Part shown: positions 363-12,772 of the stretch, piece after piece
How the letters are laid out: each line of letters starts with the position of its first letter
Position numbering within the stretch: the stretch's first letter is position 1
Assembly (NCBI RefSeq): GCF_003027925.1
Contig: NZ_PYPS01000001.1
Coordinates: 1 to 64,000, forward strand
DNA length: 64,000 nt
Origin: Micromonospora sp. RP3T
GTDB lineage: Bacteria; Actinomycetota; Actinomycetes; Mycobacteriales; Micromonosporaceae
Direction of reading: 5' to 3'
Made by a program: the position numbers and the translations under genes
Notes under the pieces: model-generated
The model's input: the letters and a program-made list of their open reading frames with translations, nothing else
The model's database searches: none
What the model was told of the DNA's origin: nothing

Positions 363-971
363 ATGGTTTTCGCTGCGACTGTCGGTGCAGAGCCGGGGAG
401 CAGAGTTGCCAGCTTCACCGCCGCTATGGGAACCACGCTCGACGATAGTGCCATAGTGGATCAATACGTTCTACATGGATCCTGCTATGCCATACAGGAA
501 GAGCAGCACTATGCGCTTAAACGCGAAGTTGCGCATCAATTCAATCTTGAAGTGAGTCGAGACATATTTGTTGTCGGCTCCGCGAAACTTGGATTCAGCA
601 TCGCGCCCAACAAGCGCTACCGGTACTTTGGTGATCGCTCAGATATAGATATCGCAATCGTGAGCCACGACCTGTATCAAAAGGTATGGCACGAGGTGCA
701 CTCATATGCGGAGTCGGGCGCGGATTGGCCCCGCCGGGAATCTTGCGAAGGGTATCTTGCCTGGGGATGGATACGTCCAGACAAACTTCCTTCCGGAAGA
801 AGTTTCACTTTTGCTTCTGAATGGTGGGAGTTTTTTCGGGCGCTGCAGCGCGGCGGGAAGTTTGGGCCCTACAAAGTGGCGGCCGGCTTGTATCACGATA
901 TTGAGTTTTTGCGTAGATACCAGATGCGCGCTGTCGGCTCGTGCCGAACGGCGTTAATTGAGGAGAATTAA
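363..971 (+). CDS. nucleotidyltransferase-fold protein, first gene of a two-gene module with a DUF262 protein
   Basis: 202 residues from ATG 363, chosen because AGGAG at 351-355 sits 7 bases upstream; an in-frame ATG at 312 lacks a ribosome site and ATG 426 is another option. The protein has the nucleotidyltransferase signature: Gly72-Ser73 followed, after a short insertion, by SDIDIAIV with the acidic pair Asp94 and Asp96. The C-terminal part (GPYKVAAGLYHDIEFLRRYQ) looks helical. Such minimal transferases move a nucleotide onto protein, RNA or antibiotic substrates; the substrate here is unknown. The stop TAA is followed directly by the GTG of the DUF262 gene, so translation is probably coupled. 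Base composition is visibly AT-richer than the surroundings and a rare TTA codon is present at 954-956, both suggesting recent transfer. Confidence 0.8.
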   Translation: MVFAATVGAEPGSRVASFTAAMGTTLDDSAIVDQYVLHGSCYAIQEEQHYALKREVAHQFNLEVSRDIFVVGSAKLGFSIAPNKRYRYFGDRSDIDIAIVSHDLYQKVWHEVHSYAESGADWPRRESCEGYLAWGWIRPDKLPSGRSFTFASEWWEFFRALQRGGKFGPYKVAAGLYHDIEFLRRYQMRAVGSCRTALIEEN

Positions 972-2024
972 GTGCAGACATCGGCGACCAACAAGAAGCT
1001 GCGCACTCTGTTGACGGGAATTCGCGATAAAACGCTTATTCCGAACCCTCACTTTCAGCGTCGACTCGTCTGGTCTAATGCTCACAAGTTGGCCTTTCTT
1101 TCAACGGTGCTAGATGGTTTGCCTTTCCCCGAGATTTTTATCTCTGCGGGTGAGGTGAACCCTAATACTGGTGATGGAACTGAACTAATTGTTGATGGGC
1201 AGCAGCGGATGACGACTCTCCATCAATACTTCACTGCCTCTGAAGAGTTGCGGCTCAGCCCAGGCGGCATAGTGCCTTACCGCGATCTAGAGGACCGGGA
1301 GAAGGTGCGGTTCTTGGAGTATGAGGTCGTTGTGCGCGATCTCGGTCCGCTGACTGAGGATGAAACCCGCGACATCTTCCAAAGGATTAACTCTACTAAG
1401 TATTCGCTGAATGCGATGGAGGTTAATAGCTCTCGGTTTGACGGAGAACTGAAGAGATTTGCCGAACGGCTAGCCGGAAAGAAATTCTTTGAGGATCACA
1501 AGGTCTTCTCGGGTCTTGATGGCCGTCGCATGAATGACGTGCGCTTCGCACTTACGATGGTGATTACGGCTTTAAGTGGATACTTTAACCGCGACGACGA
1601 ACATGAATCATATCTGGAGCGCTACAACGATAGCTTCCCTGATGCGAATCGTCTTGAGTCAGAAATTGTCGCTGTCCTTCGATTCATTGAGGATTGCGAC
1701 TTTGATGACAGGTCTCGGGTTTGGCAGAAGGCCGACCTTTTTACCTTGTTTGCTGAACTTTATCGACTGCTGATGATTGACAAGATGAAGCTTGACCCCC
1801 GAATTGTCGGTCGCACACTTGCCGACTTTTACGATGAGGTCGAGTCTGTTACGAGGTCTCCCGACCCTCGTCCTGACGCCGCTGAATATTTCCGTCGCAT
1901 GCGTGCCGGGATCAATGATCGTATGAGTAGAATTAATCGGGGCCTAGTTGTCAGGGGGCGCATTACCGATGCTAGCCTGCTTGACCTCGATCCAGGAGCC
2001 CTTCTGCCTCGACCGCGACCGTAG
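972..2024 (+). CDS. DUF262 (ParB/GmrS-like) protein
   Basis: 350 residues from GTG 972, preceded by GAGGAG. The N-terminal 150 residues are a DUF262 domain: an FQR..VW motif near residue 30, a hydrophobic helix with LPFPEIFI, and the hallmark VDGQQRMTTL with Asp75, Gly76, Gln77, Gln78 and Arg79, which in GmrS-type enzymes belongs to a nucleotide-binding, ParB-like fold. The remaining 200 residues are predicted helical and do not contain the HNH motif of DUF1524, so this is not a complete GmrSD-type nuclease. The gene starts at the base after the nucleotidyltransferase stop. A TTA codon occurs at 1572-1574. Family knowledge links DUF262 proteins to restriction and anti-phage defence; a defence role here is inference from domain and context. 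Confidence 0.85.
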   Translation: MQTSATNKKLRTLLTGIRDKTLIPNPHFQRRLVWSNAHKLAFLSTVLDGLPFPEIFISAGEVNPNTGDGTELIVDGQQRMTTLHQYFTASEELRLSPGGIVPYRDLEDREKVRFLEYEVVVRDLGPLTEDETRDIFQRINSTKYSLNAMEVNSSRFDGELKRFAERLAGKKFFEDHKVFSGLDGRRMNDVRFALTMVITALSGYFNRDDEHESYLERYNDSFPDANRLESEIVAVLRFIEDCDFDDRSRVWQKADLFTLFAELYRLLMIDKMKLDPRIVGRTLADFYDEVESVTRSPDPRPDAAEYFRRMRAGINDRMSRINRGLVVRGRITDASLLDLDPGALLPRPRP

Positions 2025-2195: not shown

Positions 2196-2954
2196 ATGCC
2201 TCCTAGTAGCAGCGTGCCGCGCGATTGTCCAACAGCCGACAATCTCAATAGGTCGCGGCTGCGGCATCATGTCGGGATGTTCTTCCATCGGCACCGCACG
2301 TCGCTCCTCTTGGGCAGCATTGCTGCAAGCTTGCTTGCTATGGTTTTAAGTGGGCTTGCCATCTTTGTCAAGTTTCGACCGGTTGCTGGTACTGAGAAGC
2401 CCAAAGTTACCGACTGGGTACAGGCTTGGGCCGGCGGTGCGAGCGCCCTCTTCACAGGCGCTGCGTTCGCAGCTGCCGCCGTTGCCCTACTGGTTGAGCG
2501 CAAGCGGCGGCGAGAGGATATTGAGAGGCTTGAGAAGCAGCGGGCGGAAGATGTCGCTCGACTAGAAGCGGATCAGGCTGACCGTGATGTAGCACAGGCG
2601 CGCCTTGTTATGACTACAGCCAACTTCGATGAGAGAACGATGCAGATCGTCTCGATGGAGGTGACTAATCATAGTCAATACACCATATTGGATGTTCAGC
2701 TATGGCTTGGTTTTCCGAGTGAAGCACTGAAGCCTGACAAGAACCGCTGGATGCATGTTATACAGGCGCTTCCGCCTGGAAAGACCTTTCAGCTGGTTGA
2801 CCCCCCTCAAATCTTCCGAGCGGGCCCCATCGGTTCGGATCACTTCGTGCCTTGGGTTGAGTTCGTGGATGCGCGAGGGCTGCGTTGGCGTCGGTTCAAT
2901 ATCATGCGGCCAATCCGACTATTTGACGGGGCCTACGATATCTCATCTAAATGA
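2196..2954 (+). CDS. hypothetical membrane protein with two TM helices, coiled coil and C-terminal soluble domain
   Basis: 252 residues from ATG 2196; an in-frame ATG at 2277 (MFFHRHRTS) gives 225 residues, places Arg/His residues just before the first helix and may be the real start. Neither has a clear ribosome site. Two hydrophobic segments (about residues 37-60 and 80-100) are followed by a highly charged helix (RKRRREDIERLEKQRAEDV), probably a coiled coil, and then a beta-rich domain of about 120 residues ending at Lys252. I do not recognise a family. A TTA codon (2346-2348) and the moderate GC link it to the upstream two-gene module as cargo, but it is separated from it by 171 bases and may have its own promoter. 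Confidence 0.7.
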   Translation: MPPSSSVPRDCPTADNLNRSRLRHHVGMFFHRHRTSLLLGSIAASLLAMVLSGLAIFVKFRPVAGTEKPKVTDWVQAWAGGASALFTGAAFAAAAVALLVERKRRREDIERLEKQRAEDVARLEADQADRDVAQARLVMTTANFDERTMQIVSMEVTNHSQYTILDVQLWLGFPSEALKPDKNRWMHVIQALPPGKTFQLVDPPQIFRAGPIGSDHFVPWVEFVDARGLRWRRFNIMRPIRLFDGAYDISSK

Positions 2955-3051: not shown

Positions 3052-3462
3052 CTAAGGGAGCTGGTAGATCCTCGCCACTGTTTTCACCGCTCCATCTGCT
3101 CGGGTAATGGTCTGTTCTTCGATTACGGGCGAGCCGACCTCGACGGCGAACAGTGAAGCTAGCTCGATGTCGGCGGCGACATGGCGTTTTTGCGTTTCTA
3201 ACTGGGGCCCCTCGCCAAGCGCGCTCTCGCCTCGGCGGGGGGCCGCATAAGTGCCGCGACCGTGTTCGGTAGCGACTGTGCATTCCTCCCGCAGAACCGC
3301 AATGGCTTGGCGGATTGTGCCGCGACTGGCCCGAAACTCCGAAGTGAGGGCGCTCTCTGGCGGTAGTAGAGCACCCGGCGGGATGGCGCCGCTCGCTATG
3401 CGTTCTCGCAGCTCGTCGGCGATGGCGCGGTAGCGGGGCTGTCCGTAGTGCGGGGTGGGCAC
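3052..3462 (-). CDS. short GntR-family repressor (KorSA-like), truncated effector domain
   Basis: 136 residues from GTG 3462. Residues about 8-75 form a GntR winged helix-turn-helix (RYRAIADELRERIASG, then LTSEFRASRGTIRQAI and a GRGTY wing). Only about 50 residues follow, the beginning of a UTRA-like domain that is normally about 140 residues, so it is either a naturally short form or truncated. In pSAM2 the GntR protein KorSA represses the activator gene pra; here a perfect inverted repeat lies just upstream of this start and a related site overlaps the pra promoter, supporting the same role. TACGGT (minus strand, 3469-3474) lies 6 bases before the GTG, compatible with leaderless transcription. 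Confidence 0.85.
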   Translation of the reverse strand: MPTPHYGQPRYRAIADELRERIASGAIPPGALLPPESALTSEFRASRGTIRQAIAVLREECTVATEHGRGTYAAPRRGESALGEGPQLETQKRHVAADIELASLFAVEVGSPVIEEQTITRADGAVKTVARIYQLP

Positions 3463-3785
3463 CTGCTCACCGTACCTGGCACTTGTCTTACCAAGTGCCA
3501 ACCAGGCGATCTGTTTCGACGTCTAGACAACTCGTCCACTTGTAGATACGTTTCGTGGTGTGCGGCCAGGGTGACGGCTCGTGTCAGGGGTGGTCTCGCG
3601 CCGGCCCTGGTCGCACCTGACGCGCGGCGTCCTGTCGGACCGGTTGCGGTAGCCGCGCGGACAAGTTGGCTCGGCGATACCCGACCCGTCCCCGTCGGGC
3701 GGTGCGCCGTGCCTTCATCCGAGCCGGTGGCCGGCCGCATTCCCCCGTGGTCGGTCGCCGGCTCTCTTCTACCTGTGGAGGTGCG
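3463..3785. other. divergent regulatory gap between the GntR repressor and the 75-residue gene
   Basis: 323 bases without a convincing gene. It contains the operator at 3477-3500, an octamer palindrome GTCTAGAC near 3520, and the Shine-Dalgarno sequence GGAGGTG just before ATG 3786. No second clear promoter could be assigned by eye. Confidence 0.4.
3477..3500. promoter_or_regulatory. operator upstream of the short GntR gene
   Basis: Perfect inverted repeat TGGCACTTG (3477-3485), spacer TCTTAC, CAAGTGCCA (3492-3500). It sits 14 bases upstream of the GTG start of the repressor gene and just upstream of its presumed -10. The half-site CAAGTGCC recurs at 7497-7504 in the pra promoter. Most likely the autoregulatory site of the GntR protein. 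Confidence 0.7.
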
Positions 3786-4013
3786 ATGTCCAGCCGTCCC
3801 CATCGACGCCGCCGGCTCTCCCTATGGTGGCCCCGAAAGCGGTACCCGACGCGATCAGCCAAGGGCGATGTCCCACCGGATGCGTGCCCGGCGGTCCCGC
3901 TGCCGGCGCGATGGTCGGTCGAGCAGGCGCGGGAGTCGTCCGCGTTGCCGCCTACTCCGCCGATCACGCGAGTCCAGGTCTACCGGGGTGGTGCCGGGCG
4001 GTGGCCGCGGTGA
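3786..4013 (+). CDS. small Arg-rich protein of unknown function
   Basis: 75 residues from ATG 3786, picked because of the strong ribosome site TGGAGGTG ending 3 to 4 bases upstream. The sequence starts MSSRPHRRRRLSLWWPRKR and is basic, then Pro-rich; no domain is recognised. Its TGA overlaps the GTG of the next gene (GTGA, 4010-4013), so it is the first cistron of an operon running to 6398. Such small genes are common in AICE accessory regions. The start is better supported than the function. Confidence 0.55.
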   Translation: MSSRPHRRRRLSLWWPRKRYPTRSAKGDVPPDACPAVPLPARWSVEQARESSALPPTPPITRVQVYRGGAGRWPR

Positions 4014-4342
4014 CGCCTACGAACAAGGGCGCCGACGTTACGAGCCACCCGGACTGGTGTGCCCCCGATCGCTGCGGGCACCTCGTGCCGCCGCTGATGG
4101 CGGAGATGACTCGCAGCCATCGCGGTGCGATGCACCGGATCGGGAGCGCTCGTGCGGGCGGCATGGTGGTCGCGTACCTCGTCGGCGTTGACGCTCGGAC
4201 GCCCCTGATTGCGGTGCATGCGACGTGCCGGGCTGGTATCGGCTGGGCTGAGCTGTCCCCGGCACAGGTCGTTCGACTGGTCGATTGCCTGAGCGGCCTG
4301 GTGATCGAGGCGGGCGGAGATCCCGGGAGCCGTGATGACTGA
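4010..4342 (+). CDS. small protein with WCxPDxCG motif (DUF6907-like)
   Basis: 110 residues from GTG 4010, overlapping the preceding stop by four bases; GTG 4001 is an in-frame alternative. The N-terminus has SHPDWCAPDRCGHL, a Trp-Cys motif that also occurs in the next gene and recalls the DUF6907 proteins of streptomycete and Micromonospora mobile elements. A central segment AGGMVVAYLVGVDARTPLIAVHA looks like beta strands and the C-terminus (LSPAQVVRLVDCLSGLVIEAG) like a helix. Function is unknown. The family assignment is from motif memory only. Confidence 0.6.
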   Translation: MTPTNKGADVTSHPDWCAPDRCGHLVPPLMAEMTRSHRGAMHRIGSARAGGMVVAYLVGVDARTPLIAVHATCRAGIGWAELSPAQVVRLVDCLSGLVIEAGGDPGSRDD

Positions 4343-4679
4343 TTCAAGGAGCATGCCGGAATATGCCCTGGGGTCGGTGACCGGCGTCGTCGGATGCCCC
4401 GCGTGGTGCCAAGGGTGCGGACCGGACGACCCGATGCACCGGGGCTTCCTCGCCACCGTCGGCCAGGAGCGGACGGGCTGGGTCAGCGTTCAGATGCTGC
4501 TCGACCGGTTCGGGCGACGGGACCTGGTCGTGAAGCTCGACGCCACCCGCGACGGCGTGATCCAGCCCGTTCTGCTCGATCAGATCCGTCTGGACCGGCT
4601 CATCTACGAACTGACCTACGTCCGCCTGGTGATGATGACCAAGGGCCTACATCTGGAAGACCACGATGAGCACCCCTGA
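4335..4679 (+). CDS. small protein with CPxWCxxC motif, paralogue-like to its neighbour
   Basis: 114 residues from ATG 4335; GTG 4332 directly before it is also possible. It overlaps the end of the previous gene by eight bases. The motif GCPAWCQGCGPDDPMHRGF resembles the WC motif of the preceding protein, and the C-terminal half (LLDQIRLDRLIYELTYVRLVMM) resembles its terminal helix, so the two probably arose from one family. No enzymatic motif is seen. It precedes the GntR-UTRA gene and is likely co-transcribed with the small genes upstream. Confidence 0.6.
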   Translation: MTDSRSMPEYALGSVTGVVGCPAWCQGCGPDDPMHRGFLATVGQERTGWVSVQMLLDRFGRRDLVVKLDATRDGVIQPVLLDQIRLDRLIYELTYVRLVMMTKGLHLEDHDEHP

Positions 4680-4783
4680 GCGTCGGCACAGTCGGACTCC
4701 CTCGCCGGCCGGGCGGCAGACCAGGCGGCCTGTGCCTCCGGTCGCCCCGGTCCCGGAACGTCCGGCTAGGGGGACCACCTGGC

Positions 4784-4811
4784 AGACGTTGGAACGTCTT
4801 GGGGGTACGGT
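4784..4811 (+). promoter_or_regulatory. perfect palindrome and -10 of the GntR-UTRA gene
   Basis: AGACGTTGGAACGTCT (4784-4799) is a perfect 7-2-7 palindrome. TACGGT (4806-4811) follows and ends 7 bases before ATG 4819, the spacing expected for a leaderless transcript. The palindrome falls in the -35 zone, consistent with an operator for the GntR protein encoded immediately downstream. Confidence 0.6.
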
Positions 4812-4818
4812 GTCCGGT

Positions 4819-5631
4819 ATGCAAGGTCGGGACTGGCGCCCTCGCTACCTGCAACTCGCGGAAGAGTTGCGGGCAAAGATCATGGGCGGTGAACTGGCCC
4901 CGGGCACTCTGATGCCGAGTGAGACCGAGCTTGCCGACTCATCCGGCCTGTCCCGTACCAGCGTGCGCAACGCGATCCGGCAGCTCCGCGAGTGGGGCCT
5001 GGTCCGCGCCGAACAGGGACGCGGCACCTACGTACGGGCACCCCGCCAACGGGTACGCCGACGCAACGCCGAGCGGTACCAGTGGGAGAAGAATCGGGTC
5101 CTGCTCGACGAGGGTGAGCGGTTGAAGACCGGTGCCACCGAGCACGACACCGGCCTGACCGTCGACGACCTCAAGTTCCACGCCGAGTACACGCGCGTGG
5201 AAGCCGATGCGGAGATGGCGGCGGCCTTGCAGGTCGACCCGGGTACGAAGCTGCTACGCCGCGTCTACTGGACGTCCTCCCGGCATGAGAACGCGCCGCT
5301 GACGGTGTCGTACTCATACCTGCCGTACGACCTGGTGGCCGCGAACCCGGACCTGCTCGACGAAAGCAAAGAGCCGTGGCCGGGCGGCACCCAGCACCAG
5401 CTCTACACCATCGGCATCGAACTGGACCGGATCGACGACCAGATCCGCGCACGCCCACCGTCGCCCGACGAGGCCGAACTCCTGGACATCGACCCGGGCG
5501 TCTCCGTCCTCACCGTCCGGAAAACCTCCGTCGACACCACCGGCCGCGTCGTCGAGGTCGCCGACATAGTGATGCCAGGTGACCGCGCCGAGCTTGTCTA
5601 CTCCCACAAACTCCAGCGGTGGAAAACGTGA
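4819..5631 (+). CDS. GntR/HutC-family regulator with UTRA domain
   Basis: 270 residues from ATG 4819. The frame is open back to 4666, but the upstream part is Pro/Arg-rich and contains a palindrome and -10 box, so I prefer the internal ATG. Residues 8-75 form a GntR winged HTH (RYLQLAEELRAKIMGG, LADSSGLSRTSVRNAIRQLREWGLV, then GRGTYV). Residues about 110-268 form a UTRA ligand-binding domain with the usual LLRRVYWTSS, APLTVSYSYLPYDLV and ELLDIDPGVSVL segments. The gene overlaps the glycosyltransferase gene by four bases, so it probably controls its own operon including that enzyme. The ligand is unknown. Confidence 0.85.
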   Translation: MQGRDWRPRYLQLAEELRAKIMGGELAPGTLMPSETELADSSGLSRTSVRNAIRQLREWGLVRAEQGRGTYVRAPRQRVRRRNAERYQWEKNRVLLDEGERLKTGATEHDTGLTVDDLKFHAEYTRVEADAEMAAALQVDPGTKLLRRVYWTSSRHENAPLTVSYSYLPYDLVAANPDLLDESKEPWPGGTQHQLYTIGIELDRIDDQIRARPPSPDEAELLDIDPGVSVLTVRKTSVDTTGRVVEVADIVMPGDRAELVYSHKLQRWKT

Positions 5632-6398
5632 CGCAGCTCGTCTCAGTCGTCACCCCCGTCCACGCGCCCAGTGTCGAGCACCTGGCTAGCGCTTATGAGT
5701 CGCTGGTCAAGCAGGAGATGCCACCCGGGTGGGACTGGCAATGGCTCGTCCAAGAGGACGGGCAGGCCGGCGCCCTGGTCGATAGGCTGCCGGACGACCC
5801 CCGGATCAGTCTCGGGACCGGTCGTCCCGGTGGGCCTGGCGTTGCCCGCACCCTCGCCCTTTCCCGAGTCTCCGGGCAACTCATCAAGGTCTTGGACGCC
5901 GACGACCAGTTGACGCCCGGGGCGCTCACGCGGGACATCGCCGCGTTCGACGCGCATCCGCAAATCGGCTGGACGACCTCGCGAGTGCTTGACCTGCTGC
6001 CCGACGGGTCTACCGCCGGCTGGGACAAGGACCCGGCCGTCGGCCTCGTCGCCCGCGGCTCCGTCCTGTCCTTCTGGCGGGCCAACGGCTACCGGGCTTC
6101 GGTGCACCCGGCGACCCTCTGCCTGCGGCGCGATCTCGTTTTGGCCCTGGGAGGCTGGATGGCGTTGCCCGCTTCAGAGGACACCGGCCTTCTCCTAGCG
6201 GCCAACGCGGTCACCGACGGCTACTTCACGCGGGAATACGGTCTGCTCTACCGGAAGTGGCCTGGACAGGTGACAAGCCAAACGGCACACCGGGAGCCCA
6301 CCGAGTACCACGGACGCATGAAAATTATCGAGGCCAGAGCCGAAGCCCTGACCTCGATGCTGCCCGATGGGCTGCCGCTCATGCCTCTGCTGGCGTAG
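5628..6398 (+). CDS. family 2 glycosyltransferase (GT-A fold), AICE cargo
   Basis: 256 residues from GTG 5628, which overlaps the regulator stop (GTGA). The N-terminus LVSVVTPVHAPSVEHLASAYESL is the GT2 nucleotide-sugar strand and helix; GVARTLALSRVSGQLIKVLDADD near residues 70-92 carries the DxDD metal/nucleotide motif; SVHPATLCLRRDLVLALGGW and PASEDTGLLL follow the acceptor-site pattern with the acidic catalytic region. No membrane helix is seen, so it is cytoplasmic. Acceptor and sugar are unknown. Location in an AICE behind a ligand-responsive regulator is unusual. The 3' end overlaps the convergent gene by 20 bases. Confidence 0.85.
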   Translation: MTQLVSVVTPVHAPSVEHLASAYESLVKQEMPPGWDWQWLVQEDGQAGALVDRLPDDPRISLGTGRPGGPGVARTLALSRVSGQLIKVLDADDQLTPGALTRDIAAFDAHPQIGWTTSRVLDLLPDGSTAGWDKDPAVGLVARGSVLSFWRANGYRASVHPATLCLRRDLVLALGGWMALPASEDTGLLLAANAVTDGYFTREYGLLYRKWPGQVTSQTAHREPTEYHGRMKIIEARAEALTSMLPDGLPLMPLLA

Positions 6399-6831
6399 CT
6401 TCATGTCCCGGCATGCCATGAGTGCGGCGCCGCTGCTTCATCTCGGCCTCATAGATGTGCCGACGGCCACCGGCTAGCTCTTCCCGTGCGTCTCGCTCGA
6501 TCTCCTGGAAGGCGGCGAAGTAGCCGTCGTCGAACTCCTCCATGATCTGGAACGTCCAGCGCCCGGGAAGGAGGTTCCGCCCCAACAGTTCGCGTTTCAC
6601 GCGGTCAGCCACCTCATCGTGACCTGCCTTGCGCATCAGCTCGACCACCCGATCGAGAGTCAGGTCAGCGCCGCCGACCAACTGATGGGCAGAATAGAGG
6701 TGGCCCCGCACGCGGTGAACGGTCTCCAAAGCCTTGCTCAACTCGCCCAAGGCCTCAACCGTGGTGTCGTCGAGGCCGTCAGGGCGCCGGTGATCCTCCT
6801 GGACCGCTTGTTGCAACTCCTTGTCTGGCAT
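6379..6831 (-). CDS. conserved hypothetical helical protein
   Basis: 150 residues from ATG 6831; TTG 6840 or GTG 6837 are other starts. The protein is helical and charged, with HLYSAHQLVGGADLTLDRVVELMRKAGH, LLGRNLLPGRWTFQIMEEFDDGYF and a basic tail. I recall similar uncharacterised actinobacterial proteins with the GRWTFQI segment, but know no function. It faces the glycosyltransferase gene and overlaps its last 20 bases, so the two are transcribed toward each other. Confidence 0.65.
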   Translation of the reverse strand: MPDKELQQAVQEDHRRPDGLDDTTVEALGELSKALETVHRVRGHLYSAHQLVGGADLTLDRVVELMRKAGHDEVADRVKRELLGRNLLPGRWTFQIMEEFDDGYFAAFQEIERDAREELAGGRRHIYEAEMKQRRRTHGMPGHEATPAEA

Positions 6832-6907
6832 GCTCACCAACTACCCTGCGAGGCGGATGCATCACGTCTTTCCTCGCAGGCGATCAAGCCGGTGAGCAAC
6901 GGGCGCG

Positions 6908-7018
6908 CTAAGCCAGCAGGGGAAGACAGCCAACCCCGCCGATGATGACCAAGATCAGAACGATGACCCGGTAGAGGATCCCGCCCGGCATCTTGATGGT
7001 GAAGTTCAGCTCGAACAC
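6908..7018 (-). CDS. 36-residue single-pass membrane protein
   Basis: Short gene starting at GTG 7018 with an AGGGAG ribosome site 6 bases upstream. It reads VFELNFTIKMPGG followed by a single hydrophobic helix (YRVIVLILVIIGGVGCLPLL) and stops after Ala36. The longer frame back to 7162 has no ribosome site and is rich in residues atypical for this organism, so the short start is preferred. Function unknown; possibilities include a small membrane regulator or toxin-like peptide, without direct support. Confidence 0.5.
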   Translation of the reverse strand: MFELNFTIKMPGGILYRVIVLILVIIGGVGCLPLLA

Positions 7019-7160
7019 ATCCGACTCCCTCGATAGCTGATGTCTCTCTGGAGAAAAACTGTAGCGATTGGTGCCAAGCCCTCGATGCCCGGAGTCGCTC
7101 TGCTGCATGGAGTATTTACTACACCCTTCTCCGGTGATACTGTCGCCGCAAGGTTGCGCC

Positions 7161-7190
7161 ATTCATAACCACATGCTTGTCGTTATGAAT
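7161..7190. repeat. inverted repeat ATTCATAAC...GTTATGAAT
   Basis: ATTCATAAC (7161-7169) and GTTATGAAT (7182-7190) are perfect inverted copies separated by 12 bases. The AT-rich arms stand out in this GC-rich region. It could be an operator for a dimeric regulator or part of a plasmid-type origin; nothing distinguishes these. Confidence 0.5.
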
Positions 7191-7483
7191 CAGCGTTTTC
7201 CCAGCTTGGACCCTGTCTCGCCTGTTGCTTGAGTCGAGAGCTCCGGAACTAATCGGACCGATATCCGAAAGCGCTCAAACTCCTAGCTGTGTGTCAATCT
7301 GGGCGAGTATTCGTTAATTCGTGTTCCCCATCACATTGATCTTCGGGGTCAATTTTCGGGCACCGGCGACCCTGGGTTCGCGGTCCCGAAGTCCAAGTTG
7401 GCGCAGAGTTCCGCGCTCCTGGCCCGGCGAGGGTTCTGATCGGTCTGCTCACCTCTTGGGCGCCGACGTGTCGGCGGCGGTTG

Positions 7484-7540
7484 TTGACTTGTCTGCCAAG
7501 TGCCGTCTACCTTGGAGTCTCAACTTGGCAGACATGCCAA
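7484..7540 (+). promoter_or_regulatory. pra promoter with overlapping repressor operators
   Basis: TTGACT (7484-7489) and TACCTT (7508-7513), 18 bases apart, make a good sigma-70-type promoter. ACTTG (7487-7491), TCTGC, CAAGT (7497-7501) overlaps the -35 and matches the inner half-sites of the GntR operator at 3477-3500. TGTCTGCCAAGT (7490-7501) is repeated inverted as ACTTGGCAGACA (7523-7534), and TTGGCA-GACA-TGCCAA spans 7525-7540. The layout fits repression of pra by the element's KorSA-like protein. Confidence 0.65.
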
Positions 7541-7558
7541 CAACCCGGAGGTTGAGCG

Positions 7559-7960
7559 ATGGCTCTGCGTGGCGGTACGAGGTTCGCCGTGCGTTGTGAG
7601 GACGTGTTCCCGGCGGGATGCGCCCTGGTCCCCGAGTCCCTGGGTGAGGTCGAGGACTTCGACGAGAAGACGGGCCGGCGCAGCCCGGCGAAGGACAAGT
7701 TGACCGGTCAGCGGGTGTGGCAGGTGCGGGTGATGGATCTGGACCCGGAGCTTGGGAAGCGCTCGCGGGAGACGACGGTGAAGATCTCGGCGGACTACCA
7801 GCCGGTGCCGCCGACGGGTGCCCCGTTCGAGGCGGTGGAGTTCGACGGGATGACGGTGACGCCGTACGTGGCGAACAACGGCCGGATGGCGTACTCGCTG
7901 CGGGCGACCGGCATGCGCGCTCCGGCAGGTGTGGCCAGCAACAAGAAGGCGGCGGCGTAG
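7559..7960 (+). CDS. pra: Pra-like activator of AICE replication, integration and excision
   Basis: 133 residues from ATG 7559 with GGAGG at 7547-7551. The sequence matches my memory of the family annotated as plasmid replication, integration and excision activator: FAVRCEDVFPAGCALVPESL, VKDFD-like VEDFDEKTG, DKLTGQRVWQVRVMDLDPE, VKISADYQPVPPTGAPFEAVEFDGMTVTPYV and GRMAYSLRATGM. In pSAM2 Pra switches on rep, xis and int and is held off by KorSA; operator-like repeats over its promoter here agree. It is the first gene of the backbone cluster and is followed by a strong hairpin before the next gene. Confidence 0.85.
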   Translation: MALRGGTRFAVRCEDVFPAGCALVPESLGEVEDFDEKTGRRSPAKDKLTGQRVWQVRVMDLDPELGKRSRETTVKISADYQPVPPTGAPFEAVEFDGMTVTPYVANNGRMAYSLRATGMRAPAGVASNKKAAA

Positions 7961-7972
7961 CCGCATTTGGTG

Positions 7973-8014
7973 GGGGCGGGGCTGTCAGGTCTTGGCGGAC
8001 GGCAGCCCCGCCCC
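7973..8014 (+). terminator. strong hairpin downstream of pra
   Basis: GGGGCGGGGCTG (7973-7984) pairs perfectly with CAGCCCCGCCCC (8003-8014) around an 18-base loop; a pyrimidine-rich stretch follows. It separates pra from the conjugation/replication genes and may terminate or attenuate transcription, making expression of the downstream genes conditional. Confidence 0.6.
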
Positions 8015-8053
8015 TGTGTCTCTTTCCCCTGCTCTGTCGAGAGAGGTAGTGAC

Positions 8054-8236
8054 GTGTCCAAGCGTAGGCGTTCGGCTGCCCCGGCCCAGCCTCGGTGCGG
8101 CGTGTGTCAGTCCCGGTTCGATCCGGCCACGGGTGCCGATGGCCGGTGTGAGGGCTGCGTGGGGCAGCTCGTGCTTCCGTTTCCTCCGGTGCGGGATGCG
8201 TCGGGTCGGTTCGTGTCGCTGCGGGGTGCCAAGTGA
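8054..8236 (+). CDS. small zinc-ribbon-like protein
   Basis: 60 residues from GTG 8054 with an AGAGAGG stretch upstream. Two Cys pairs, CGVC near residue 15 and CEGC near residue 32, suggest a metal-binding ribbon; the N-terminus is basic (SKRRR) and the C-terminus is VRDASGRFVSLRGAK. It overlaps the translocase gene by four bases (GTGA). Small Cys-pair proteins commonly sit between pra and tra genes in AICEs, but the function is not known to me. Confidence 0.6.
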   Translation: MSKRRRSAAPAQPRCGVCQSRFDPATGADGRCEGCVGQLVLPFPPVRDASGRFVSLRGAK

Positions 8237-9855
8237 TTGGGCGGCCTCGCGGTGAGGTGGTGTCGACCTCGGCCGGTGACCTGATCGTGTTCCGTCCGAG
8301 GCGCTTCGAGCTGCCGATGTGGCTGGTGGTGCTCGGCCTGGTGCTGCGCTGGTCCGGGCGGGTGCTGTGGTGGTGCCTGCGTCATCCGGTGGCAACCGGC
8401 TCAGTGGTCCTGGCGCTGTGGCTGTACGTCGAGTTCGACTGGCTCGGCCTGGTGGTGCCGCTGGTGATCGCGTCGGCGGTGTCGGCGGTGTGGCGCTGGC
8501 GCGATGAGTCGTCCTGGTGGGCGTGGCTGGCGGGCCCGCTGCTCGGCTCCTTCCGGCGGGTGTTCGTCTACCGGCGGGTGTGGCGTGAGGCCATGACGCT
8601 CTGCGGGCTCGCCGAGACGTTCGACCGCCGGCACGTTCTCCCTGAGCTGCTGCGGGTCCGCTCGGATCAGGCCCTCGACGTGCTGACGGTCCGGATGGTG
8701 CGGGGGCAGACGCCGGAGCAGTTCCAGCGGATGAGCGCGAACCTGGCCTACGCCTTCGGCCGGCGCCACGCCCGGGTCTACGCGGAACGTCCCGGCGACC
8801 CGCCGACCCGGACTGGTCGGGGTGCGTGGGTGTTGCGGTTGGTGGATCGGGTGCGGTATCGGGACCGGCCGACGGTGGTCTACGTGGCGTTGGTGCGGAG
8901 CGATGCGTTGCGCACGCTGGTGCCGCCGTTCCCGGTGCCGGCGGTGCCGGACTTCACCGCGCTGCCGTTGGCCCGGCGGGAGGACCTGCGGACCTGGTCG
9001 CTGCATCTGCTCGCGACTCACGTGCTGGTGGGCGGCGCCACCCGGTCGGGGAAGGGCTCGGTGCTGTGGTCGCTGGTCCGGGTCCTCGGCGGCGGGGTCG
9101 CCTCCGGGCTGGTGCGGCTGTGGGTGGTCGACCCGAAGGGCGGGATGGAGTTCGCGCTCGGCCGGCCGATGTTCGCCCGGTTCGCGTGCAAATCGTTCGA
9201 GGCGATAGCGGACCTTCTCGACGAGGCCGTGACCGTGCTGCGGGAGCGTCAGACCCGCCTGGCGGGAACGGTGCGGGTGCACACGCCGACCGAAGTGGAC
9301 CCCCTGGTCGTGGTCGTCGTCGACGAGATGGCGGCGCTGACCGCCTATTTGCAGGATGTCGAGCTGCGTAAGCGCATCGCCGCCTCGCTCGGGGTGCTGC
9401 TGTCGCAGGGTGCCGGCGTCGGTGTGCTGGTGGTGGCGGCGTTGCAGGACCCGCGTAAGGAGGTGCTGCCGTTTCGGGACCTGTTCCCGACCCGCATCGC
9501 GCTCGGCCTGACCGAGGCGTCACAGGTCGACATGGTCCTCGGCGACGGTGCCCGCAACCGTGGCGCGCTCGCGGACCAGATGCCCCGGTGGGCCAAGGGC
9601 GTCGGCTACGTGATCCTCGACGGCACCCCCGACCCGATGCGGGTCCGGTTCTCCTACGTCACCGACGACGACATCCGCGACATGGCCCAGCGGTTCCCGG
9701 CACCGGCTGACGCATCGGACATCCTCGCCCAGGTCGGCCGGGAAACCGCCACCGAACCGGTACGCCTTCCCTTGCCGCGTAAGCCGTCCGGGCCGCTGCT
9801 GCCCGACGCGCTACGCAACCTCCTCGACTCCGACGGCGGGGGTGAGCCGCGGTGA
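8233..9855 (+). CDS. FtsK/SpoIIIE-type conjugal DNA translocase (TraSA/TraB-like)
   Basis: 540 residues from GTG 8233. N-terminal hydrophobic helices (about residues 30-90) anchor it in the membrane. The ATPase core has Walker A GGATRSGKGS starting at Gly267, the VVDPKGGMEF segment, Walker B VVVVVDEM near residue 360 and the sensor region VVAALQDPRKE. AICEs transfer double-stranded DNA with a single FtsK-like protein that recognises short repeats and pumps DNA through a hexamer; this is that protein by length, motifs and context. It is coupled by GTGA overlaps to the genes on both sides. Confidence 0.92.
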   Translation: MIGRPRGEVVSTSAGDLIVFRPRRFELPMWLVVLGLVLRWSGRVLWWCLRHPVATGSVVLALWLYVEFDWLGLVVPLVIASAVSAVWRWRDESSWWAWLAGPLLGSFRRVFVYRRVWREAMTLCGLAETFDRRHVLPELLRVRSDQALDVLTVRMVRGQTPEQFQRMSANLAYAFGRRHARVYAERPGDPPTRTGRGAWVLRLVDRVRYRDRPTVVYVALVRSDALRTLVPPFPVPAVPDFTALPLARREDLRTWSLHLLATHVLVGGATRSGKGSVLWSLVRVLGGGVASGLVRLWVVDPKGGMEFALGRPMFARFACKSFEAIADLLDEAVTVLRERQTRLAGTVRVHTPTEVDPLVVVVVDEMAALTAYLQDVELRKRIAASLGVLLSQGAGVGVLVVAALQDPRKEVLPFRDLFPTRIALGLTEASQVDMVLGDGARNRGALADQMPRWAKGVGYVILDGTPDPMRVRFSYVTDDDIRDMAQRFPAPADASDILAQVGRETATEPVRLPLPRKPSGPLLPDALRNLLDSDGGGEPR

Positions 9856-10106
9856 CCACCCCTGCGAACGGTCGCCGGTTCTACCGGCTGCGCACCCCCG
9901 AACCCGTCACCGCCGTGTCCGTCCGCGTCGACCCGCAACGGCCCGACCCGTACCCGGTCTATCTCGCGGTCGGTGCCGGCCGGCGACGGATGTCCCTGAC
10001 CCCCGACGAGGCATGGGCGCTGTGGCGCTGCCTCTCCGAAGCCGTCGCCGCCCTCGGCGCCCCTCCCGACTACATCCGCACCGACATCCGACCGGCCAGG
10101 AGGTAA
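9852..10106 (+). CDS. small AICE backbone protein, unknown function
   Basis: 84 residues from GTG 9852, overlapping the translocase stop by four bases. The protein reads FYRLRTPEPVTAVSVRVDPQRPDPYPVYLAVGAGRRRMSLTPDEAWALWRCLSEAVAAL, a mostly beta N-terminal part followed by an amphipathic helix. No catalytic motif is visible. Its fixed position between the tra and SpdB-like genes suggests a role in transfer or spread, which is inference. Confidence 0.65.
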   Translation: MTTPANGRRFYRLRTPEPVTAVSVRVDPQRPDPYPVYLAVGAGRRRMSLTPDEAWALWRCLSEAVAALGAPPDYIRTDIRPARR

Positions 10107-10111
10107 CCGCG

Positions 10112-10303
10112 ATGACCACCCTCACCCGCATCGTCAACCGGCTCCGCCGCCCGCTGCGCATCCGCCTCGTCGGCCCGGCCGACCAGACCGCCGCCGCCCT
10201 GCACGGCCTGGCGCACATGGTCAACCGCCGCCCCGACATGGCCGACCGGCGAATCCGCATCGACCTGACCATCCGCGACAAGCCCATGCGGGAGTGGCGA
10301 TGA
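10112..10303 (+). CDS. small basic AICE backbone protein
   Basis: 63 residues from ATG 10112, supported by the strong ribosome site AGGAGGT (10098-10104). It is rich in Arg and Leu (MTTLTRIVNRLRRPLRIRLVGP ending PMREWR) and likely forms helices. The gene overlaps the following membrane-protein gene by four bases (ATGA). No family is recognised; small basic proteins at this place are typical of pSAM2-like elements. Confidence 0.65.
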   Translation: MTTLTRIVNRLRRPLRIRLVGPADQTAAALHGLAHMVNRRPDMADRRIRIDLTIRDKPMREWR

Positions 10304-10845
10304 CCGAGCGCACCGAATCCGCCATACGCCTGGTGATCCTGCTCGCCATCGCCGCCATGGCCGGCGCCGCCGCCTTCACCCACGTCCACGACCTGTCCGT
10401 CACCCACGGCCAACCCGACTGGATCGGCTGGGCCAACGCCGTAGCCGTCGAGCTGATGACCATCTACCTCGGCCTGGAACTACGCGCCCGACGCCGCGCC
10501 GGTCGACCCGTCGGCCTGGTGGGCTCGCTGCTGGTGGCGTTCGCGTTGCTGTCCCTCGCCGCTCAGGTCGCGGAAGCCCATCCGTCGGTGTGGGGCTGGG
10601 TCGTGGCGGCGGTGCCGTCACTGGCCTTCCTCGCCCTGGTCAAGGTCGTCCTGTCCAACGCCCCGGTCACGCCGCCGGCTGTCGAGCCGAACCAGCCCGA
10701 CGCGTACCGGTACGAAGAGCCAGAGCAGGCCACCGAGGTTGAGCCGGTCCGCCCGACCGCGCCGGCGTCGCCCGTCGTGCCGGCGGTGCTGCCTCCGCGT
10801 GCTGTCCCGCCTAACCGGCCGCACGTCGTCGGAATCATCCGATGA
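10300..10845 (+). CDS. DUF2637 / SpdB-like membrane protein
   Basis: 181 residues from ATG 10300. Four hydrophobic segments cover residues about 8-27, 42-60, 68-90 and 98-118; the pattern HVHDLSVTHGQPDWIGWANAVAVELMTIYLGLELRARRR matches DUF2637 proteins. The C-terminal 60 residues are Pro/Val/Glu-rich and soluble. DUF2637 proteins are the SpdB-type spread proteins of actinomycete conjugative elements, thought to help plasmid movement between hyphal compartments. It is coupled to rep by an ATGA overlap. Confidence 0.8.
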   Translation: MTERTESAIRLVILLAIAAMAGAAAFTHVHDLSVTHGQPDWIGWANAVAVELMTIYLGLELRARRRAGRPVGLVGSLLVAFALLSLAAQVAEAHPSVWGWVVAAVPSLAFLALVKVVLSNAPVTPPAVEPNQPDAYRYEEPEQATEVEPVRPTAPASPVVPAVLPPRAVPPNRPHVVGIIR

Positions 10846-12593
10846 CCGCGCCGACCCTGCCCGGCCTTGCCCCCGTCCCGACCCCGGCTGCTGCTCCTCG
10901 GCCGGGGTCGCGGGCGGCCCGCATGGCGCTACCCCGCTCCGTCGATGTGCTCAAGGAGATCGCCGCCGAGTACGGCGTCTGCGTGCGCCCCCTGGCCATG
11001 CGCCGCACGGACCTCGACACCGGCCTGACCGAGGTCATCGACCTGCCCTGCGGCGCGACCCGGGAAGACAAGTGCGCGCCGTGCGCGAAGAAGAACCGCC
11101 GGCTGCGCCAGGCCCAGATCCGGGAGGGCTGGCACCGCGACGACGAACCGCTACCGCCCCCGCAGCCGGCGACCGAGGAACAGTCGTCCCTGATCCTCTT
11201 CCGCGCACACCTGGAGTTCTCCCGTGACGAGGCTTCTCGGGCGTGCCAGTGGGACCAGGTGGAAGACCTCGACGAGGCGATCCGCGAAGTGGAAGAGGCG
11301 ATCGCGGCCGAAGGGCTCCGGGGACGGGTCGCCCCGCCGCACGCGACCGGCGACGAGGACCAGGGCGACGACGACACCGGCCCGCGCCGCAAGCGCTCCA
11401 CCCGACGGCGGCAGGACGCCCCGGAACTGCCTCGCCGCAAGGTGGAGGCGCGCACGGTCGGCAGGACGTACACCGCTGCGGACGGGGCCACCTACCGGCC
11501 GTCGATGTGGCTGACGCTCACCCTCGACTCCTACGGCCCCGTCCGCCCCGACGGCACCCCGCTCAACCCCGACCGGTACGACTACCGCCGGGCCGCGTGG
11601 GACGCGGTGCACTTCCCTCGGCTGCTCGATCGGTTCTGGCAGAACCTGCGGCGGTGTGAGGGCTGGAACGTCCAGTACGCCGGCTGCGTCGAGCCGCAAC
11701 GCCGCCTCGCCCCACACGCCCACTTCGCCATCCGGGGCACCATCCCCCGGGACATCCTGCGCACCGTCGCGGCGGCCACCTACCACCAGGTGTGGTGGCC
11801 GGCGGTCGACGCCCAGCGGTACACCGTCGACCGGCCCCCGGTCTGGGACGAGGACGCCTCGGCGTGGGTCGACCCCGACACCCGCCAGCCGCTGACCACC
11901 TGGACGGAAGCCCTCGACACCATCGACGCCGACCCGGACGCGGAACCGGTGCACGTGGTCCGCTTCGGCGCCCAAGTCGACGCCCGCGGCGTCATGCCCG
12001 GCACCGCCGACGCCGAACGGACCATCCGGTACGTCACGAAGTACATCACCAAGCACACCGGCGACTGCCACAAGGCCACCACCGACCGGCAACGGGCACA
12101 CCTGGACCGGCTGTGGCGGGAACTGCGCGTGACCCCCTGCACCGACCGTTGCGCGAACTGGCTGCTGTACGGCGTCCAGCCGAAGAAGGCACACGCGAAG
12201 CTCAAGCCGGGCCGCTGCAAGGGAAAGGTCCACCAGCGCGACACCCTCGGCATCGGCGGCCGGCGCATCCTCATCTCCCGCGACTGGTCCGGCAAAACGC
12301 TCTCCGACCACAAACACGACGTGCGGGCCTGGGTGCGGGCGCTGCTCGGCGTCACCGTCGGCCTTGATGGCGTCGACGACCAGGGCGCCGCCGTCGAACC
12401 GGTCCGGCACGCCTGGGAACTGGCCCGCCCCGATGATCCGGACGTGCCGGCGATGGCGCACCGGCTGCTGCGGTCGATCAGCGAACGCGCCCGCTGGCGC
12501 TCCGAACTGCTCGCCGCCAAGGACCGCGCGGCCCAGCTCCCCGACAACGCCTCGACGACGGAAGCGCACTACAAGACGGGGGAGGGGCTGTGA
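10842..12593 (+). CDS. RepSA-like replication initiator
   Basis: 583 residues from ATG 10842. An N-terminal region has Cys clusters (DLPCGATREDKCAPCAKKNRR) probably binding zinc, a charged middle, and a core with the HUH-type motif PHAHF (His292 and His294) and the tyrosine motif YVTKYITKH (Tyr397, Tyr401). These are the metal-binding and nicking residues expected for rolling-circle initiators of the pSAM2 RepSA group. CTDRCANWLLYG follows with a further Cys pair. The gene overlaps spdB-like and xis genes. It should nick the element's double-strand origin after excision. Confidence 0.9.
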   Translation: MTAPTLPGLAPVPTPAAAPRPGSRAARMALPRSVDVLKEIAAEYGVCVRPLAMRRTDLDTGLTEVIDLPCGATREDKCAPCAKKNRRLRQAQIREGWHRDDEPLPPPQPATEEQSSLILFRAHLEFSRDEASRACQWDQVEDLDEAIREVEEAIAAEGLRGRVAPPHATGDEDQGDDDTGPRRKRSTRRRQDAPELPRRKVEARTVGRTYTAADGATYRPSMWLTLTLDSYGPVRPDGTPLNPDRYDYRRAAWDAVHFPRLLDRFWQNLRRCEGWNVQYAGCVEPQRRLAPHAHFAIRGTIPRDILRTVAAATYHQVWWPAVDAQRYTVDRPPVWDEDASAWVDPDTRQPLTTWTEALDTIDADPDAEPVHVVRFGAQVDARGVMPGTADAERTIRYVTKYITKHTGDCHKATTDRQRAHLDRLWRELRVTPCTDRCANWLLYGVQPKKAHAKLKPGRCKGKVHQRDTLGIGGRRILISRDWSGKTLSDHKHDVRAWVRALLGVTVGLDGVDDQGAAVEPVRHAWELARPDDPDVPAMAHRLLRSISERARWRSELLAAKDRAAQLPDNASTTEAHYKTGEGL

Positions 12594-12772
12594 TGGCCAA
12601 GGACGAGCTGTGGACGGTTCGGGACGTGTCGGCGTACCTCCGGGTCCCGCAGGAAACGCTGTACCGCTGGCGCAAGGTCAAGTACGGTCCGCCGGCGGCC
12701 CGGGTCGGCCGACACCTGCGCTACGAGCCGGAAGCGGTCCGGGCCTGGGTACGCGAGCAGGCGGCGGCCTGA
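12593..12772 (+). CDS. xis: excisionase (Xis), MerR/AlpA-type winged helix
   Basis: 59 residues from ATG 12593; GTG 12590 just before it is also possible. The sequence LWTVRDVSAYLRVPQETLYRWRKVKYGPPAARVGRHLRYEPEAVRAWVREQ is a typical AICE Xis winged helix. GGGAGGGG upstream serves as ribosome site. It overlaps rep and int by one to four bases, so all three are made from one transcript. Xis bends DNA at the attachment site and lets the integrase excise the element. Confidence 0.9.
   Translation: MAKDELWTVRDVSAYLRVPQETLYRWRKVKYGPPAARVGRHLRYEPEAVRAWVREQAAA

What the first reader, a model, noticed from the sequence alone, without database searches (positions are those of the whole stretch)
363..2024. 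Candidate two-gene defence module: minimal nucleotidyltransferase plus DUF262 protein without nuclease domain
A 202-residue nucleotidyltransferase (Gly72-Ser73, Asp94, Asp96) ends on the base before a DUF262 gene (DGQQR at 75-79) starts. DUF262 proteins are known from GmrSD-type restriction, where a DUF1524 nuclease is attached or adjacent; here no HNH is seen and the partner is a nucleotidyltransferase instead. The pair could work by nucleotide transfer triggered or fuelled by the DUF262 ATP/GTP-binding fold. I know of no characterised system with exactly this pair, which does not exclude one.
Basis: partly seen in the sequence, partly recalled or inferred. Interest (0 to 1): 0.75.

Follow-up and report, generated by a model that had tools for sequence, protein, structure and literature searches.

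The report
Nucleotidyltransferase–DUF262 two-gene defence-like module
Two tightly joined foreign genes, a small nucleotide-transferring enzyme and a relative of a DNA-restriction protein that lacks the usual nuclease part, travel together through very different bacteria and look like an undescribed two-part defence system with an unusual effector.

Summary
Gene A (363-971, 202 aa) carries GS-x20-DxD; gene B (972-2024, 350 aa) is a DUF262/GmrSD_N protein with DGQQR and no DUF1524/HNH domain. The pair is lower in G+C than its flanks in 15 of 15 loci tested; some copies lie near DRT8, OLD, MrcB_N, methylase or transposase genes. A's model aligns best, weakly, with an MNT antitoxin (Z 4.9); B's with BrxU, ParB and SspE. 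DUF262-only relatives are paired elsewhere with HEPN, kinase or ATPase genes, so B looks like a shared sensor/switch and A like a swapped effector (inferred; 0.45). Main rival: an MNT-like antidote that modifies B (0.3). By the features tested it is not GmrSD, Menshen, PD-T4-2 or HEPN-MNT. The listings of nine paper searches showed no account of it. New variant of a known kind.

The parts
363..971 (+). Gene A: 202-aa Pol-beta-type nucleotidyltransferase-like protein (GS-x20-DxD, candidate third Asp D140)
   Evidence: ORF and ribosome-binding-like site; conservation in 20 DUF262-linked genes; AF2 model pLDDT 80, pTM 0.78; VIA-align first row MNT antitoxin Z 4.9; phrog_32008 2.1e-10
576..581 (+). 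G72-S73 codons of gene A
   Evidence: invariant in 20 of 20
642..650 (+). D94-x-D96 codons of gene A
   Evidence: invariant in 20 of 20
780..782 (+). D140 codon of gene A, candidate third metal ligand
   Evidence: Asp at this aligned column in 16 of 20; an Asp lies within a few residues in L010, L031 and L037 by eye; L008 has Asn
972..2024 (+). Gene B: 350-aa DUF262 (GmrSD_N) protein, ParB/Srx-like N-domain plus helical C-terminal part, no DUF1524/HNH found
   Evidence: Pfam PF03235 3.6e-20; PADLOC NsnA 4.3e-27, PD-T4-2_A 5.5e-12, REase_II 1.4e-9; AF2 model pLDDT 75, pTM 0.55; VIA-align BrxU Z 9.3, ParB-CDP 8.6, SspE 8.2
1194..1208 (+). DGQQR codons (residues 75-79) of gene B, predicted NTP pocket
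   Evidence: invariant in 20 of 20

Best explanation
A self-contained, mobile two-gene defence-like module. B (DUF262-only, ParB/Srx fold with the DGQQR nucleotide pocket) is the sensor and NTP-driven switch; it recognises something about invading DNA, plausibly a base modification as in GmrSD/BrxU, or a replication intermediate. A, encoded first and apparently translationally coupled to B, is the effector: when B switches, A's Pol-beta-type site (GS...DxD, D140, two metals) attaches NMP to a host target such as a tRNA 3' end or an essential protein, stopping the infected cell. Shown: the conserved pair, its tight junction, its foreign composition, motif conservation, the ParB-like fold of B's N-domain. 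Supported weakly: the fold of A. Inferred: nucleotide transfer, that A rather than B is the harmful part, its target, and the trigger.
For: Of 24 distinct A genes 20 have B directly downstream, in 14 clusters below 50% identity. A and B distances correlate (Mantel r 0.96, p 0.0001, 20 pairs; r 0.68 over the 169 comparisons with A distance above 0.5), as for a unit inherited together. G+C below flanks in 15 of 15 loci tested. Neighbours within about 5 kb: Drt8 (3e-146) upstream in L044, OLD (5e-48) in L045, type II methylase in L042 and C5 methylase in L040, N6_N4 methylase in L014 = L041, MrcB_N in L046 and IS91-type transposase on both sides in L045. Catalytic-type residues of both proteins are invariant. 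DUF262-only relatives carry other second genes in place of A: HEPN PF18737 7.6e-18 (L053), protein kinase (L051, L058), AAA_15 ATPase (L056 and the host's own L002); ptuXYZ pairs a DUF262-only protein with an ATPase and an RNase (PMC11980606, section 26 read). With no nuclease domain beyond DUF262 found in B, A is the most recognisable effector enzyme.
Against: No phenotype is known. A is always 5' of B (20 of 20), the antidote's position in MNT-HEPN pairs (PMC3710099, passages), whereas the other second genes I saw are 3' of DUF262. In MNT-HEPN the same reasoning ('only active enzyme must be the toxin') was made and proved wrong (PMC3710099, passages). B's DUF262 region matches a PADLOC type II restriction-enzyme model (1.4e-9) and ParB-like domains have been credited with nuclease activity (PMC4619093, PMC5512222, passages), so B could be the harmful part. 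Fold evidence for A is weak (no Foldseek match at E<=0.001; VIA Z under 5, with unrelated rows tied). Of 10 neighbour proteins tested in PADLOC, 4 had strong matches, 2 weak ones (6e-4, 7e-4) and 4 none; there was no random control.
Confidence: 0.45

Rival explanations
1. Type VII-like toxin-antitoxin: A is an antidote that NMPylates B and keeps it quiet; B is the harmful NTP-dependent protein, perhaps a ParB-type nuclease, released on infection.
For: A lies 5' of B in 20 of 20; the first structural row for A is an MNT antitoxin (8xeo_B, Z 4.9), whose family poly-AMPylates HEPN toxins (PMC11586414, passages). B's DUF262 region matches a PADLOC REase_II model at 1.4e-9. One A homologue (L036) has neither DUF262 nor transglycosylase in its 3.6-kb locus, as orphan antitoxins might.
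Against: No known toxic domain was found in B; its invariant C-terminal Y306/R320/R323 look like a general DUF262 feature (a similar Y...R pattern is visible by eye in the host's own NsnA-like L002), so there is no candidate site peculiar to this pair. GS-DxD spacing is 17-24, not 10. In A's other pairing (transglycosylase) A is 3' (3 of 3).
Confidence: 0.3
2. A makes a small nucleotide signal (CBASS-like) that binds and switches B through its DGQQR pocket.
For: 1 of 9 A members weakly hits a PADLOC oligonucleotide-cyclase model (5.4e-3); CdnD rows appear among weak structural matches (Z 3.2, 2.8 and 2.5). B has a nucleotide-pocket fold.
Against: A is about 200 aa, shorter than the CdnD chains matched (300-346 aa); window A itself hits no cyclase model.
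Confidence: 0.1
3. A mobile addiction or housekeeping pair with no role against phages or plasmids.
For: Two copies are on plasmids (L010, L011) and in L045 the pair lies between two near-identical IS91-type elements. Several copies (for example L038, L020) showed no defence match in the neighbour proteins tested.
Against: Defence-type neighbours in several unrelated loci; DUF262 family context is defence (PMC10952713, PMC4619093, passages).
Confidence: 0.12

Closest known systems
GmrSD / BrxU / SspE (type IV restriction and relatives)
   Same: DUF262 domain with DGQQR; model of B aligns with BrxU (Z 9.3) and SspE (Z 8.2)
   Different: No DUF1524/HNH found in B; partner is a nucleotidyltransferase-like protein
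Menshen (NsnA/NsnB/NsnC)
   Same: B is NsnA-like (4.3e-27); DUF262 without DUF1524 (PMC10952713, passages)
   Different: No NsnB-type ATPase beside the pair; a separate NsnA+NsnB locus exists elsewhere in this genome (C109)
PD-T4-2
   Same: B matches PD-T4-2_A (5.5e-12)
   Different: A matches no PADLOC model at E<=1, and the genome has no PD-T4-2_B match
ptuXYZ (candidate locus, PMC11980606, section 26 read)
   Same: DUF262-only protein in an operon with a toxic-type enzyme
   Different: Three genes with ATPase and BECR RNase; no nucleotidyltransferase
HEPN-MNT type VII toxin-antitoxin
   Same: Small Pol-beta-type nucleotidyltransferase as 5' gene of a two-gene module; an MNT is the first structural row for A (Z 4.9)
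   Different: GS-x17..24-DxD instead of GSx10DxD, about 200 aa, partner DUF262 instead of HEPN

Membership tests
GmrSD type IV restriction | DUF262 (GmrSD_N) domain with DGQQR | tested here: met
   Pfam 3.6e-20; residues 75-79
GmrSD type IV restriction | DUF1524/HNH nuclease fused or adjacent | tested here: not met
   No DUF1524/HNH match in A, B or the next ORF 2196-2954 (the PADLOC REase_II match in B, 1.4e-9, covers the DUF262 region); C-terminal part of B helical in the model, BrxU matched only to residue 421 (chain of 580). Upstream DNA ends at the contig start, 362 bases before A
Menshen | NsnA-like DUF262 protein | tested here: met
   PADLOC NsnA 4.3e-27
Menshen | NsnB ATPase gene next to it | tested here: not met
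   A and ORF 2196-2954 have no PADLOC hit; the genome's only strong NsnB match is at C109 (2.7e-98)
Menshen | NsnC (OLD-type nuclease) gene | not tested
   no search with the NsnC model was made
PD-T4-2 | PD-T4-2_B partner gene | tested here: not met
   No PADLOC match of A at E<=1; no match to PDLC04028 (PD-T4-2_B) in the genome. No PD-T4-2_B sequence could be obtained for a direct comparison (0 of 158 genomes)
HEPN-MNT | Pol-beta nucleotidyltransferase fold | tested here: inconclusive
   VIA rows: MNT 4.9, putative NTase 1ylq 4.1, poly(A) polymerase 3.8, but tied with unrelated 3byr 4.2 and 7nhk 4.0; Foldseek E at best 0.71; Pfam NTP_transf_2 in 3 of 9 members, best E 0.013
HEPN-MNT | GSx10DxD spacing | tested here: not met
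   x17 to x24 in 20 genes, x20 in the window; motif definition from PMC11586414 (passages)
HEPN-MNT | HEPN partner | tested here: not met
   Partner is DUF262 in 20 of 24 loci; no HEPN match in B
CBASS CD-NTase | CD-NTase family match | tested here: inconclusive
   1 of 9 members at 5.4e-3; window protein none
Any named defence system | Protection against phage or plasmid | not testable with these tools
   needs a bench assay

The most novel reading that the evidence does not exclude
A family of about 200-residue nucleotidyltransferases (GS-x~20-DxD, phrog_32008) is a general-purpose effector or modifier that evolution plugs onto different sensors: DUF262 in 20 of 24 loci found, and a standalone peptidoglycan transglycosylase (GT51) in 3 of 24. 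DUF262-only sensors are in turn plugged onto HEPN, kinase, ATPase or nucleotidyltransferase partners. The window pair would be the first nucleotidyl-transfer effector under a GmrS-type sensor that I know of.
Probability: 0.4. Interest if true: 0.8.

Novelty: new variant of a known kind. Interest (0 to 1): 0.62.

Why it matters
DUF262 proteins are common in defence loci, but those without a DUF1524 nuclease are poorly understood. A compact pair with two conserved active-site-like motifs, small enough to clone whole, makes it testable whether DUF262 is a reusable NTP-driven sensor for different effectors, and would add nucleotide transfer to its outputs. It also points to an unannotated nucleotidyltransferase family (no Pfam, PADLOC or NCBIfam hit for the window member) found in about 0.7 to 2% of the genomes sampled, seed genomes included.

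Tried and rejected
Rejected: Menshen, PD-T4-2 and GmrSD membership (see tests); HEPN-MNT membership (spacing, partner). The candidate L009 was dropped as a false match: a short match with a stop inside, in a repetitive PE-PGRS-like frame (by eye).

Led nowhere: single-protein scans of genome and viral contigs with window A, viral scan with A3, phage tblastn with three A proteins (no match), plasmid tblastn with L022 A (no match), BFVD fold search with A (nothing at E<=0.001), PDB sequence searches (no convincing match). A fused A+B alignment meant for complex prediction put A rows into B and was not folded, so no A-B complex was modelled. A tree of 30 DUF262 proteins did not make the A-linked ones a single clade: the window group (W, L037, L011, L033, L032) is well supported (97-100), but several deep nodes among the rest are weak (25-59), so partner swapping is suggested, not proved.

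Limits: the neighbour check used proteins picked by eye from 5-6 kb flanks of some loci, 10 in PADLOC (4 strong, 2 weak, 4 none) and 10 in Pfam, without a random control; the flanks of L017, L018, L022, L039 and L043 were looked at by eye only, except one L039 protein with no Pfam match. The G+C test used 15 of the 19 DUF262-linked loci other than the window (L007, L016, L019, L023 were left out). The A profile was built mostly from DUF262-linked members, which may favour such loci. Pseudomonadota genomes were not sampled systematically, only plasmids and the genome-contig scan. The PADLOC protein names, AICE-type gene order and the HEPN R-x4-H motif read by eye rest partly on recall.

Full report
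Observation. Shine-Dalgarno-like AAGGAG and GAGGAG precede the two starts by 7 and 6 bases. B is a DUF262/GmrSD_N protein (3.6e-20), nearest in PADLOC to NsnA (4.3e-27) and PD-T4-2_A (5.5e-12); its DUF262 region also matches a REase_II model at 1.4e-9, with weaker HEC and Orf5 matches. A matches nothing in Pfam, PADLOC or NCBIfam but matches phrog_32008, of unknown function, as do all 9 members of the first alignment.

Co-occurrence. Homologues of A were sought by A alone, so the neighbour was not part of the query. Sources: 298 genomes of the order (7 matches, one of them, L009, false), 396 of the phylum (4), 398 of the phylum of the Eubacterium genome (3), 395 of the phylum of the Paludibacteraceae genome (5), 293 of the order of a Streptomyces genome (2), plasmids (3 records of 72,556) and a scan of genome contigs (8 loci). 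These counts include the seeds and overlap. After merging there are 24 distinct A genes, the window's included. Twenty are followed directly by a DUF262 gene on the same strand, from overlap to a 12-base gap (18 rows covering 16 distinct loci, the other four from coordinates; L015's B frame is open far upstream, so its start is uncertain). The 20 fall in 14 clusters below 50% identity. DUF262 genes are otherwise sparse: 31 places in 41 genomes, own included, with matches in 20 of the 41, so such adjacency is not chance. On plasmids, the two best matches of B among 45 records are the two that also have A.

Exceptions. In L012, L034 and L035 the A homologue overlaps the end of an upstream standalone transglycosylase gene (PF00912, 6.7e-36, 4.7e-28, 6.7e-28). 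L036 has neither partner; an M23 peptidase gene lies upstream. A profile of the 20 DUF262-linked A proteins alone still finds these four at 1.4e-24 to 9.8e-18, with the search space set to one million, so they are one family.

Conservation and fold. Over 20 pairs, A keeps G72, S73, S93, D94 and D96 without exception and D140 in 16; B keeps Q29, R30, W34, E54, D75, G76, Q77, Q78, R79, R138, N140, R186, Y306, R320 and R323 among others. GS-DxD spacing is 17 to 24, most often 20. The model of A (pLDDT 80, pTM 0.78) places GS between a strand and a short helix and DxD at the start of the next strand. Foldseek finds nothing at E<=0.001, the first row being a mitochondrial poly(A) polymerase at 0.71. 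VIA-align, a second look at 213 of Foldseek's own rows, puts an MNT antitoxin first (Z 4.9, rmsd 4.0, 91 aligned), a putative nucleotidyltransferase third (4.1), and many poly(A)/uridylyl transferases, Pol X and CdnD below; unrelated rows (3byr 4.2, 7nhk 4.0) are tied with the top. This supports a Pol-beta nucleotidyltransferase without proving it. The model of B (pLDDT 75, pTM 0.55) aligns with BrxU (Z 9.3, rmsd 13.6), ParB with CDP (8.6, rmsd 2.6, 97 aligned) and SspE (8.2, rmsd 12.4); the large rmsd of the long rows means only the ParB-like domain is firmly matched.

Mobility and context. The pair is poorer in G+C than its flanks in 15 of 15 loci tested; in the window it is 0.520 against 0.728 for bases 15001-64000. 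It lies beside an integrative-element-like gene set (GntR, UTRA regulator, FtsK, RepSA; integrase by eye), as L040 appears to by eye. In L045 it sits between two IS91-type copies identical at 1729 of 1739 bases. Defence neighbours: Drt8 (L044), OLD (L045, 4.9 kb away) and methylases (L040, L042); MrcB_N (L046); N6_N4 methylase (L014, the same place as L041). The proteins tested were chosen by eye; in PADLOC 4 of 10 matched strongly, 2 weakly and 4 not at all, and there was no random control. A and B distances correlate (Mantel r 0.96), as expected for co-inherited genes.

Partners of other DUF262-only genes. Nine further loci (L050-L058, up to 2.5 kb flanks) hold no A homologue in six frames. 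Their second genes are a HEPN protein (P2-like phage L053), protein kinases (L051, L058) and an ATPase (L056). In L052, L054 and L057 they are small proteins without a Pfam match that show an R-x4-H motif, HEPN-like by eye only. L050 is followed by a 103-aa protein without a Pfam match and L055 by a transposase. The nine were chosen from the hits, not sampled at random. The host genome has its own NsnA+NsnB pair at C109. Papers: PMC10952713 (passages) notes that PD-T4-2, Menshen and Dazbog have DUF262 without DUF1524; PMC11980606 (section 26 read) describes ptuXYZ, a DUF262-only protein, which it calls a putative nuclease, with ATPase and RNase; PMC3710099 (passages) lists HEPN MAE_28990 in operon with a ParB nuclease and a methylase gene.

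Mechanism. The partner swapping points to DUF262 as shared sensor/switch and the second protein as effector; by that logic A is the effector. Against it, A holds the 5' antidote position, its first structural row is an antidote enzyme, and B could itself be a nuclease. I therefore give 0.45 to effector, 0.3 to antidote, 0.1 to signal synthase and 0.12 to a non-defence role. That A and B form one functional unit I hold at about 0.9, that it is defence at about 0.75; both are judgements.

Novelty. The listings of paper searches for DUF262, GmrSD, nucleotidyltransferase, HEPN, AMPylation, Menshen and PD-T4-2 showed no account of this pair; the library holds open-licence papers only and only part of the hits was listed. 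PMC4619093, the family survey of GmrSD, does not contain the word nucleotidyltransferase in its main text (passages). I file it as a new variant of the DUF262-plus-partner scheme.

Noticed in passing
L012:7367-8621, L034:1471-2797 (-), L035:795-2079: Second module of the same nucleotidyltransferase family: it overlaps a standalone GT51 transglycosylase gene, without DUF262, in these 3 loci; a CAP12/Pycsar TIR gene follows in L035.
   Followed up: partly
L051:2423-4569, L058:2441-4583: DUF262-only gene directly followed by an overlapping protein kinase gene on two Asticcacaulis plasmids.
   Followed up: partly
L053:140-2015; also L052, L054, L057: DUF262 followed by a HEPN gene (PF18737) in a P2-like phage; in three other records by small proteins with an R-x4-H motif seen by eye.
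   Followed up: partly
G000:C109 (L002): The same genome has a separate NsnA-like DUF262 gene with an NsnB-type ATPase, i.e. a Menshen-like locus at a contig start.
   Followed up: partly
window 3052-13974: Integrative-element-like gene set next to the pair (GntR, UTRA regulator, FtsK, RepSA, integrase-like frame by eye) carrying a family 2 glycosyltransferase gene (5619-6398).
   Followed up: partly
window 2196-2954: Low-G+C gene for a putative membrane protein (by eye) just after the pair, no family match above cut-off.
   Followed up: no
L044:4515-6107: DRT8-type reverse transcriptase gene directly upstream of the pair, equally low in G+C at third positions, forming a three-gene island.
   Followed up: partly
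L049:5398-6848: Solo member of the nucleotidyltransferase family 29 bases after an M23 peptidase gene in a conjugative-element-like region.
   Followed up: no
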